NCBI RefSeq assembly: GCF_000321005.1
Contig: NZ_HE578909.1
Coordinates: forward strand, 1-64,000
Origin: Anaerococcus senegalensis JC48
Lineage (GTDB): Bacteria; Bacillota; Clostridia; Tissierellales; Peptoniphilaceae
Reading direction: 5' to 3'
Length of the DNA stretch: 64,000 nucleotides
Part shown: positions 43,071-58,767 of the stretch, piece by piece
Layout of the letters: the number at the start of each line of letters is the position of its first letter
How positions within the stretch are numbered: the stretch's first letter is position 1
Notes under the pieces: model-generated
The model's database searches: none
Told to the model about the DNA's origin: nothing
What the model saw: the letters and a program-made list of their open reading frames with translations, nothing else
Made by a program: the position numbers and the translations under genes

Positions 43071-43230
43071 AAAATAGTCATCTCCTTTATTTTCTATAAA
43101 ATAATCTCAAAATTATTTTACCGTAACAACATCCTATTAAAGACTTACCCGATATAAGATTGTTCAAACGTTTAATATTTTTTAGATAAGTAATTTATCT
43201 TTTATTTTTAAAAATTTTCTTCTTTTCTTT

Positions 43231-43540
43231 AGTCTGAGGGGTAAATATTAAAATAGTGCTACTGGCATATTTTTAAGCTAATTTACACGCTAAATTAACA
43301 TTCATTTTTTAATAAATTAGCTTATTACTTTGTTTTTCTTAATTTATTTCTTCGTTTTTCTCCGTAGGATAAATATTAAAAACGTCCATATAGGGACCTT
43401 TTTAAGCTATTTATCTGCTAATTATCATTCTTTTTGTAATGATTTAGCATATTATTTTATTTTGCTTTTTGTAATTCTCTGTTTGACTCCGCGGGGTAAT
43501 TATTAAAAACGTGCAACTGGCACGTTTTTAATATTTATCT
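43231..43540 (-). repeat. Three diverged tandem copies of a terminator-bearing unit
   Basis: Units begin at about 43239, 43368 and 43494 with GGTAAATATT, GATAAATATT and GGTAATTATT (spacing 129 and 126). Each is preceded by a TCTGAGG, CTCCGTAGG or CTCCGCGGG block and contains a hairpin: AAAATAGTGC-TACTGGC-ATATTTTT, AAAAACGTCC-ATATAG-GGACCTTTTT and AAAAACGTGC-AACTG-GCACGTTTTT. Units 1 and 2 continue with AAGCTA-TTTA and a TAGC hairpin. The last hairpin (43504-43532) is the terminator of the sigma-factor gene, the others are upstream-facing duplicates. Confidence 0.7.
43502..43534 (-). terminator. Terminator of the sigma-factor gene
   Basis: TTAAAAACGTGC and GCACGTTTTTAA form a 12-bp perfect stem with a five-base loop immediately after the stop codon of the sigma gene. 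Confidence 0.85.
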
Positions 43541-49752: not shown

Positions 49753-50327
49753 TGTTTAGTGTTTTTAATATAGAAACTTTGATTTTCAAAATAAATAGAA
49801 TAGATTTTTCAGATAAAATAAATTATATTTGCGACAAAAATGGTTCAGGAAAAACTCTTTTTTTGGATAGCCTTTATTTTGATAATAAGGTTAGGATAGA
49901 ACCTCATATAGACAAAAAAGATATAATCTATCTAAGCCAACATTTTTCTTTTTATGAAAGAGTAAAAGTAAAAGATTTTGTGGAATTTTTTGACCAAATA
50001 AATAATGAAAATCTTCTAGAAAAAATAAGAAAAAATTCTTACATAAATAATTTTATAAATGAAAATTTCGATAAAACCCTCTACCACCTATCAGGTGGAG
50101 AATTTAAATTTTTATATTTGATTTTACTTCTATTTACTGATAAAAAATTATACTTATTAGATGAACCCTTTAATGAACTTGATAAAGAAAAAGCAAAATA
50201 CATAGCAAATTTAATCAAAGATTTAAACAAAAATGGCAAAAAAATAATAATAACCAACCACTATGATTTGGGATTATTTGAAGAAAAAGATATAAAAAAA
50301 ATAAGGCTATTAGACCATACAGTCTAA
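49749..50327 (+). CDS. Compact ABC transporter ATP-binding protein
   Basis: A 192-residue ABC ATPase, shorter than the usual 220-300. Walker A CDKNGSGKT, Q-loop YLSQHF, signature LSGGEFKFLYLIL, Walker B LYLLDEPFNELD and switch His TNHYD are all present, so it should be active. AAAGGAG lies before two adjacent ATG codons at 49749 and 49752; either may be used. Its last codons form part of a terminator hairpin (50305-50333), which is one of the direct repeats around the mobile element. Confidence 0.85.
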   Translation: MMFSVFNIETLIFKINRIDFSDKINYICDKNGSGKTLFLDSLYFDNKVRIEPHIDKKDIIYLSQHFSFYERVKVKDFVEFFDQINNENLLEKIRKNSYINNFINENFDKTLYHLSGGEFKFLYLILLLFTDKKLYLLDEPFNELDKEKAKYIANLIKDLNKNGKKIIITNHYDLGLFEEKDIKKIRLLDHTV

Positions 50328-50333
50328 ATAGTC
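50305..50333. repeat. Terminator hairpin, left copy flanking the palindromic element
   Basis: 29-base hairpin with GGCTATTAGAC and GTCTAAATAGTC arms. It matches 24 of 29 bases with the right copy at 50494-50522, and includes the end of the ABC ATPase gene. Positions 9 and 20 differ but keep pairing (G-C here, A-T in the right copy). Confidence 0.7.
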
Positions 50334-50493
50334 CAGAGTATAGACAAAGTCAGTTTACTAATTCAAAAATAGAATTAAGCTAAAACCCATCTCGACTAAG
50401 TGAGTGAAACGAACGCATGGAGAGATCTCATTAGATTTCTCCGTTCGTTTTACTCGGTCGAAACTGGCAGATTTTAGTTTGTCAACAGTCTGA
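50334..50493. mobile_element. 160-bp palindromic element with terminal inverted repeats
   Basis: It starts CAGAGTATAGACAAAGTCA and ends in the reverse complement of CAGACTGTTGACAAACTAA (14 of 19 positions match). The middle has two inverted halves, CCCATCTCGAC...GGAGAGATCTCA (50386-50430) and GATTTCTCCGTTCGTTTT...GTCGAAA (50434-50463). It is non-coding. The same 45-base core, without a mismatch, occurs in the element at 58576-58747. Confidence 0.75.
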
Positions 50494-50522
50494 GGCTATT
50501 AAACCCTAGAGTTTAAATAGCC
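50494..50522. repeat. Terminator hairpin, right copy flanking the palindromic element
   Basis: GGCTATTAAAC and GTTTAAATAGCC arms. It is also the end and terminator of the radical SAM gene on the minus strand, so both convergent genes end in the same kind of hairpin with the element between them. Confidence 0.7.
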
Positions 50523-58555: not shown

Positions 58556-58575
58556 AAAAGCCTCCTAAAGCTTTT
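58556..58575. repeat. Terminator hairpin, left copy flanking the second palindromic element
   Basis: AAAAGC-CTCCTAAA-GCTTTT, 20 bases. It matches the right copy at 58748-58767 in 19 of 20 positions. Confidence 0.75.
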
Positions 58576-58747
58576 CAGAGCGTAGACAAAGTCAGTTTAA
58601 TAATTAATTAATGATTCAAAAAATAAAATTACGCTAAAACCCATCTCGACTAAGTGAGTGAAACGAACGCATGGAGAGATCTCAAGAGATTTCTCCGCCC
58701 GTTGCACTCGGTCGAAATGAGAAAATTTTTAGTTTGTCAACAGTCTG
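58576..58747. mobile_element. 172-bp palindromic element with terminal inverted repeats
   Basis: Start CAGAGCGTAGACAAAGTCA, end the reverse complement of CAGACTGTTGACAAACTAA (14 of 19 match). It has the same layout as the element at 50334-50493 and an identical 45-base core (58640-58684), followed by the inverted half GATTTCTCCGCCCGTTG...GTCGAAA. Non-coding. Confidence 0.78.
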
Positions 58748-58767
58748 AAAAGCCTCCTAAGGCTTTT
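58748..58767. repeat. Terminator hairpin, right copy flanking the second palindromic element
   Basis: AAAAGCCT-CCTA-AGGCTTTT, a better stem than the left copy, with T-rich tail. Neither copy follows a gene end on the plus strand. Confidence 0.75.

What the first reader, a model, noticed from the sequence alone, without database searches (positions are those of the whole stretch)
58556..58767. Second full copy of the element, again flanked by a duplicated terminator hairpin (copy D)
The 172-bp element shares an identical 45-base core and the same terminal repeats with copy C, yet the flanking 20-base direct repeat is a different hairpin (AAAAGCCTCCTAAGGCTTTT, 19 of 20 identical). Two independent copies with different but duplicated terminators suggest a rule: the element targets or carries along the local terminator. 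This would be a terminator-seeking MITE, mobilised by a transposase in trans.
Basis: partly seen in the sequence, partly recalled or inferred. Interest (0 to 1): 0.75.

Follow-up and report, generated by a model that had tools for sequence, protein, structure and literature searches.

The report
Hairpin-duplicating IS1182-type mini-transposon
A short mobile DNA element lands on the small hairpins that end genes and copies the whole hairpin, so each gene keeps its stop signal; its likely mover is a known transposase family, and the length of the copied DNA follows the target hairpin rather than a fixed number of bases.

Summary
Copy D is a 172-bp element (58576-58747) between two 20-bp copies of one hairpin (19/20 identical). 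I found 12 such elements in the genome (genus Anaerococcus, by inference); 11 of 12 are bracketed, by eye, by a duplicated hairpin that differs between sites. A relative about 97% identical lacks copy D, and Anaerococcus ihuae lacks copy C; each has one hairpin there. So the hairpin is the target and is duplicated, not carried along. Congeners hold an IS1182-family insertion sequence (about 1.6 kb) with matching ends and the same behaviour; none was found in the window's genome. Streptococcus phages Javan87 and Javan90 differ at one site by such an IS plus a 26-bp hairpin copy. Of 70 IS1182 loci with ends called, 48 have exact repeats of 16-52 bp, and all 48 are centred on the target's dyad. 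IS1272 of the same family is reported to delete its target hairpin; this group duplicates it. Target choice and duplication are shown by sequence; attack at the feet of an extruded hairpin is inferred.

The parts
58556..58575 (.). left copy of the duplicated target hairpin (AAAAGCCTCCTAAAGCTTTT)
   Evidence: single copy in the empty site of G002
58576..58747 (+). copy D: non-autonomous element, subfamily A, 172 bp, too short for a transposase gene
58576..58590 (+). terminal inverted repeat CAGAGCGTAGACAAA
58733..58747 (-). terminal inverted repeat CAGACTGTTGACAAA (minus strand)
58633..58684 (+). 52-base stretch identical in copies C and D
   Evidence: (sequence), position read
58748..58767 (.). 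right copy of the duplicated target hairpin (AAAAGCCTCCTAAGGCTTTT), identical to the empty site
50304..50333 (.). copy C, left copy of its 30-bp target hairpin
50334..50492 (+). copy C: the other element of subfamily A in the window, 159 bp
50493..50522 (.). copy C, right copy of its 30-bp target hairpin (25 of 30 identical to the left copy)

Best explanation
Copy D is a non-autonomous transposon (MITE) moved in trans by an IS1182-family DDE transposase that chooses its target by palindromic fold. Insertion duplicates the whole palindrome, so the element sits between two complete hairpins. Shown by sequence: the palindrome is the target, one copy stands in the allele without the element, the duplication is centred on its dyad, and its length varies from site to site. 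Inferred (my estimate about 0.6): the target is extruded as a cruciform or hairpin; the transposon 3' ends join at the two 5' feet, which lie close together at the four-way junction whatever the arm length; gap filling then copies the arm. This would also explain safe landing at gene ends, because each neighbouring gene keeps a hairpin.
For: Own genome: 11 of 12 elements with duplicated hairpins by eye. Automated ungapped test: above the 99% point of 1143 mismatched flank pairs in 11 of 12 own (one of these by a 6-bp repeat without hairpin), 35 of 40 congener and 5 of 6 IS copies. Empty sites: copy D in G002 overlaps by 20 bp, copy C in G003 by 31 bp; phage Javan87 versus Javan90, 26 bp, flank-joined model found letter for letter. 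Autonomous partner: NCBIfam IS1182 435.5 bits against a cut-off of 270; 18-bp end consensuses of the IS (6 copies) and of MITE subfamily B (21 copies) agree at 17 of 18 at both unequal ends. Generality: 48 exact repeats of 16-52 bp among 70 loci with ends called, dyad offset 0.0 in 48 of 48 against 4.3% of 2000 random windows within 1 base. Cut context AAN|A. 41 of 44 sites lie outside ORFs of 100 aa or more, against 27% of random positions.
Against: C1:1343121-1343417 has only a 6-bp repeat and no hairpin. L083, L092/L156, L129, L139, L141, L146, L168 and L176 have two different hairpins (recombination or assembly suspected, not proved); L085 and L089 have only part of a second copy. 20 of 70 loci did not pass the repeat test, through miscalled ends, different hairpins or no visible repeat (L161, L175). 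No IS1182 transposase was found in the window's genome. 9 of 44 targets failed my terminator-like criterion and 5 of 44 have no gene end facing them within 400 bp; the strict scan finds no terminator at copy D. Stem extent and repeat length correlate only moderately (Spearman 0.46), so the end of pairing alone does not set the cut; the A at the cut may matter. No biochemistry was done. Each empty site could in principle be a precise excision rather than a pre-insertion state.
Confidence: 0.85

Rival explanations
1. The element carries the hairpins as part of its own ends (transduced terminators).
For: Hairpins abut both ends in nearly all copies.
Against: The hairpin differs from site to site, and the alleles without the element already hold that local hairpin.
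Confidence: 0.02
2. The transposase makes a long, variable staggered cut in ordinary B-form DNA and prefers palindromic sequence as a two-fold symmetric binding site; no extruded structure is needed.
For: Symmetry about the dyad and the AAN|A cut context would also follow from binding two half-sites.
Against: Repeat length runs from 16 to 52 bp, 1.5 to 5 helical turns, which a fixed transpososome would hardly span; base preferences fade beyond the first few bases inside the cut. IS1272 is reported to remove the arm at the same kind of target (PMC5678879, PMC4923244).
Confidence: 0.2
3. The target is a hairpin in single-stranded DNA at a replication fork or transcription bubble rather than a cruciform in duplex DNA.
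For: The sites lie at gene ends; a single-strand hairpin has the same feet.
Against: No strand bias was tested here; duplication of the whole arm on both sides fits a two-strand cruciform more simply.
Confidence: 0.15
4. The copies are immobile repeats shaped by recombination between pre-existing tandem terminators.
For: Some copies have two different hairpins.
Against: Alleles without the element carry one hairpin, and the Javan87/Javan90 pair differs only by IS plus 26 bp in the stretch compared.
Confidence: 0.02

Closest known systems
IS1272 and TnSha1 (IS1182 family, staphylococci), stem-loop-replacing transposition (PMC5678879: abstract, section 22, section 29 part 1 and passages seen; PMC4923244: passages seen)
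   Same: IS1182-family transposase; palindromes or terminator hairpins of differing sequence as targets; often just after genes.
   Different: IS1272 is reported to remove the target stem-loop and leave no target duplication; the group here duplicates the whole stem-loop. PMC5678879 draws that outcome only as a possible pathway (Fig 13, pathway b, legend seen).
Other IS1182-family elements named by annotation in the hits: ISEfa7 (Enterococcus plasmids), IS1562 (note on the Javan87 transposase)
   Same: Found by the same transposase query (about 48% and 52% identity); the Javan87 copy duplicates a 26-bp hairpin.
   Different: ISEfa7 ends and target repeats were not examined here.
Bacterial MITEs in general (for example RUP in pneumococcus; recalled, only the listing of PMC3049150 seen)
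   Same: Short, terminal inverted repeats, no gene, thought to be moved by a transposase in trans.
   Different: Here the target is a hairpin and the target duplication is long and of variable length; short fixed duplications are usual (recalled).

Membership tests
IS1182 family (autonomous partner in congeners) | transposase profile NF033551 above its cut-off | tested here: met
   435.5 bits against 270, one G009 protein
IS1182 family (autonomous partner in congeners) | Pfam DUF772 and DDE_Tnp_1_6 domains | tested here: met
   E 8.4e-25 and 3.2e-24
IS1182 family (autonomous partner in congeners) | palindromic targets, as reported for some members | tested here: met
   dyad offset 0.0 in 48 of 48 exact repeats of the wider set; 5 of 6 congener copies with duplicated hairpins
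IS1182 family (autonomous partner in congeners) | catalytic DDE residues and strand-transfer activity | not tested
   no residue mapping and no assay
MITE | short, terminal inverted repeats, target duplication, no transposase gene | tested here: met
   172 bp, ends and repeats as; 172 bp cannot hold a transposase gene
MITE | ends shared with an autonomous element | tested here: met
   15-bp end core shared by subfamily A (copy D); 17 of 18 at both ends for subfamily B
MITE | observed movement by that transposase | not testable with these tools
   needs an assay
IS1272-type stem-loop-replacing elements | target hairpin deleted, no target duplication | tested here: not met
   duplicated hairpins at both ends; by contrast 8 of 8 examined copies of the second Anaerococcus IS1182 clade show no such repeat
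REP / TnpA-REP (RAYT) elements | Y1 HUH transposase partner | not tested
   no search for such a gene was made

The most novel reading that the evidence does not exclude
A DDE transposase group for which the length of the target duplication is set by the folded structure of the target: it integrates at the two 5' feet of an extruded cruciform, so the duplication is the whole palindrome, 16 to 52 bp. One family, IS1182, would then hold both outcomes of one structure-directed reaction, arm deletion (IS1272) and arm duplication (this group).
Probability: 0.6. Interest if true: 0.75.

Novelty: new variant of a known kind. Interest (0 to 1): 0.64.

Why it matters
Target duplications of cut-and-paste transposons are normally short and of fixed length because the enzyme's geometry sets them (general knowledge). 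Here the target's own palindrome appears to set position and, largely, length, in several bacterial groups and in phages, with a phage pair as a before-and-after record. It gives a testable case of DNA-shape-directed integration, suggests how an element can land on gene-end hairpins without harming the genes beside them, and gives a simple rule (hairpin, element, same hairpin) for finding such elements.

Tried and rejected
Elements of 1.76-1.85 kb in G003 with the same ends first looked autonomous, but by their ORFs carry an IS110-like (L052, L054) or an IS3-like (L051) element nested inside the MITE (these two family names are from memory of the protein sequences, no family search was run). 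Carried-along hairpins were rejected by the empty sites. Of the 35 terminal-pattern hits, 14 had no partner and were not counted (the reversed control pattern gave 11); of the 20 BLAST matches, 9 are core-only repeats without the CAGA ends and were not counted. L102 was dropped because its right end looked false; L095 and L099 show one end only. In one search two own elements were entered with starts a few bases off; with mended coordinates one more passes, 11 of 12, while C1:528846-529097 is seen by eye only. In one search, ends look miscalled in L121, L140, L149, L150, L167, L170, L174, L177, L191 and L199; they stay in the denominator of 70. L123 and L156 look like the same copies as L091 and L092, and L121 as L094, so the congener set and the wide set overlap. 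L100 and L110 of the second clade look like one site in two genomes. A possible bias in which hairpin copy decays relative to gene direction was not clear enough to claim. Ten literature searches listed no paper that, by title or abstract, describes whole-hairpin duplication by IS1182 elements; most listed papers were not opened. The held library lacks most subscription reviews, and I recall, without a call, that IS catalogues list long variable repeats for this family.

Full report
Observation. The window holds copy D at 58576-58747, flanked by AAAAGCCTCCTAAAGCTTTT and AAAAGCCTCCTAAGGCTTTT (19 of 20 identical). Copies C (50334-50492) and D share an identical 52-base stretch. A palindromic 20-mer repeated at this distance occurs once in the window and in 0 of 10 block shuffles. 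The strict terminator scan finds none at the site, so 'terminator' is a reading of shape and place.

Genome-wide count. BLAST (20 matches, 11 of them pieces of 7 elements, 9 core-only) and the terminal pattern CAGASYGTWGACAAA (35 hits with up to 2 mismatches, 14 unpaired; reversed control 11) give 12 elements of 146-322 bp in the window's genome. By eye 11 of 12 lie between two copies of a hairpin that differs from site to site; the exception, C1:1343121-1343417, has a 6-bp repeat only. The automated ungapped test puts 11 of 12 above the 99% point of 1143 mismatched flank pairs, that exception included, and 7 of 12 above the largest value (10 and 7 of 12 with two starts a few bases off). Two interiors occur (subfamilies A and B) with the same ends and the same behaviour.

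Congeners. The pattern with at most one mismatch occurs in 27 of 31 genomes of the genus, the window's own included (its list of places was cut within G004). I fetched 40 stretches chosen from the G002 and G003 places; 38 of them held 40 elements. 37 of 40 are bracketed by duplicated hairpins by eye; 35 of 40 pass the automated test, one of these (L085) by a 7-bp partial repeat. L083, L085 and L089 do not show two full copies of one hairpin.

Empty sites. In G002 (about 97% identical around the site) copy D is absent: the two flanks of copy D overlap on one 20-bp hairpin identical to the right copy. In G003 copy C is absent and its flanks overlap on one hairpin by 31 bp. G002 holds an element at terminator C in the opposite orientation, either a second hit or an inversion.

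Autonomous partner. PF13751 transposases occur in 14 of 31 genomes of the genus and not in the window's; the IS1182 profile also finds none in the window's genome. Thirty of 48 matches were fetched. Six have both CAG-type ends (1558-1597 bp) and 5 of these 6 have duplicated hairpins; L092 has two different ones. The transposase is IS1182 by NCBIfam, 435.5 bits against 270, with DUF772 and DDE_Tnp_1_6. End consensuses: IS CAGACTGTaGACAAAGTA and CAGAgCGtcGACAAACCC (6 copies); MITE B CAGACTGTTGAcAAAGTA and CAGAGCGTAGACAAACCC (21 copies). The two unequal ends match in register, which ties the MITEs to this IS. Subfamily A (28 copies), to which copy D belongs, shares the 15-bp core.

Generality. 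A scan with an alignment of three transposases found 161 relatives; the best 80 were kept, mostly Firmicutes, with two Cellvibrio loci. Ends were called in 70 (4 without ends, 6 too near a contig edge). Fifty of 70 exceed the maximum of the shuffled-pair null (1381 pairs) and 48 have exact repeats of 16-52 bp. All 48 are centred on the dyad of the target palindrome with offset 0.0; 4.3% of 2000 random windows fall within one base. Repeat length and stem extent correlate moderately (Spearman 0.46). The cut context is AAN|A on both sides and the pairs 3-5 bases inside the cut are formed in 48 of 48. Of 44 sites with at least 600 bp on each side, 41 lie outside ORFs of 100 aa or more (27% for random positions), 39 have a gene end facing the site within 400 bp, and 35 meet a simple terminator-like criterion.

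Phage before-and-after pair. Of 14 phage records with a match I fetched five. Javan87, Javan256, YS387 and phiJH1301-3 have exact hairpin repeats of 26, 22, 24 and 18 bp; YS225 has 21 of 22. Javan90 lacks the Javan87 copy; 905 bases of flank-joined sequence with one 26-bp hairpin are found in it letter for letter. The record lengths differ by 1564 bases, which is 1538 plus 26. Searches with flanks of phiJH1301-3 and YS387 listed no allele that I followed up.

Contrast. A second IS1182 clade in Anaerococcus (290.5 bits; 27% identity to the first over 335 positions) has ends GGGGCTGTTGCA and no duplication in 8 of 8 examined copies (a ninth, interrupted copy left out); most flanks are an A-rich and a T-rich stretch, as expected if a hairpin was replaced. 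This resembles published IS1272 behaviour (PMC5678879, PMC4923244).

Mechanism. That hairpins are chosen and duplicated is shown by sequence. That the enzyme attacks the 5' feet of an extruded structure is inferred from variable length with fixed symmetry; Wan et al. (PMC5678879) drew this as possible pathway b. Mobilisation of copy D in trans is inferred from shared ends and the absence of a local transposase; the source may have been lost or transient.

Novelty. Palindrome targeting by IS1182 members is known. Whole-hairpin duplication with structure-set length was not seen in the listings of ten searches of the held library, which lacks most subscription reviews. I file it as a new variant of a known kind.

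Noticed in passing
L052 and L054 (G003): An IS110-like element (413-aa ORF; family name from memory) sits at the same point of the GAGATCTC core in two separate MITE copies, which would fit site-specific targeting of the MITE core.
   Followed up: partly
L051 (G003): A multi-ORF IS3-like element (family name from memory) is nested inside another MITE copy; the outer element still has its duplicated hairpins.
   Followed up: partly
L129, L139, L141, L146, L156 (= L092), L168, L176: IS1182 copies with two different complete hairpins, one at each end; recombination between copies is suspected.
   Followed up: partly
L009, L012-L016, L018-L020 (window's genome): The GAGATCTC / GGTCGAGATGGG core also occurs without the CAGA ends, in some with inserted modules (ACTAAAACACGTTTGC...), suggesting a separate modular repeat family.
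   Followed up: no
window 43201-43515: Three imperfect repeats spaced about 127 bp; part resembles, by eye, the inner module of the elements at C2:110772 and C3:174968.
   Followed up: no
L201 (G002), terminator of copy C: An element of the same family sits at the same terminator as copy C but in the opposite orientation.
   Followed up: partly
L094 / L121 (Anaerococcus ihuae): An IS1182 copy with an open 506-aa frame has lost its right end up to a second copy of its hairpin; such a copy could serve MITEs in trans while being stuck itself.
   Followed up: no
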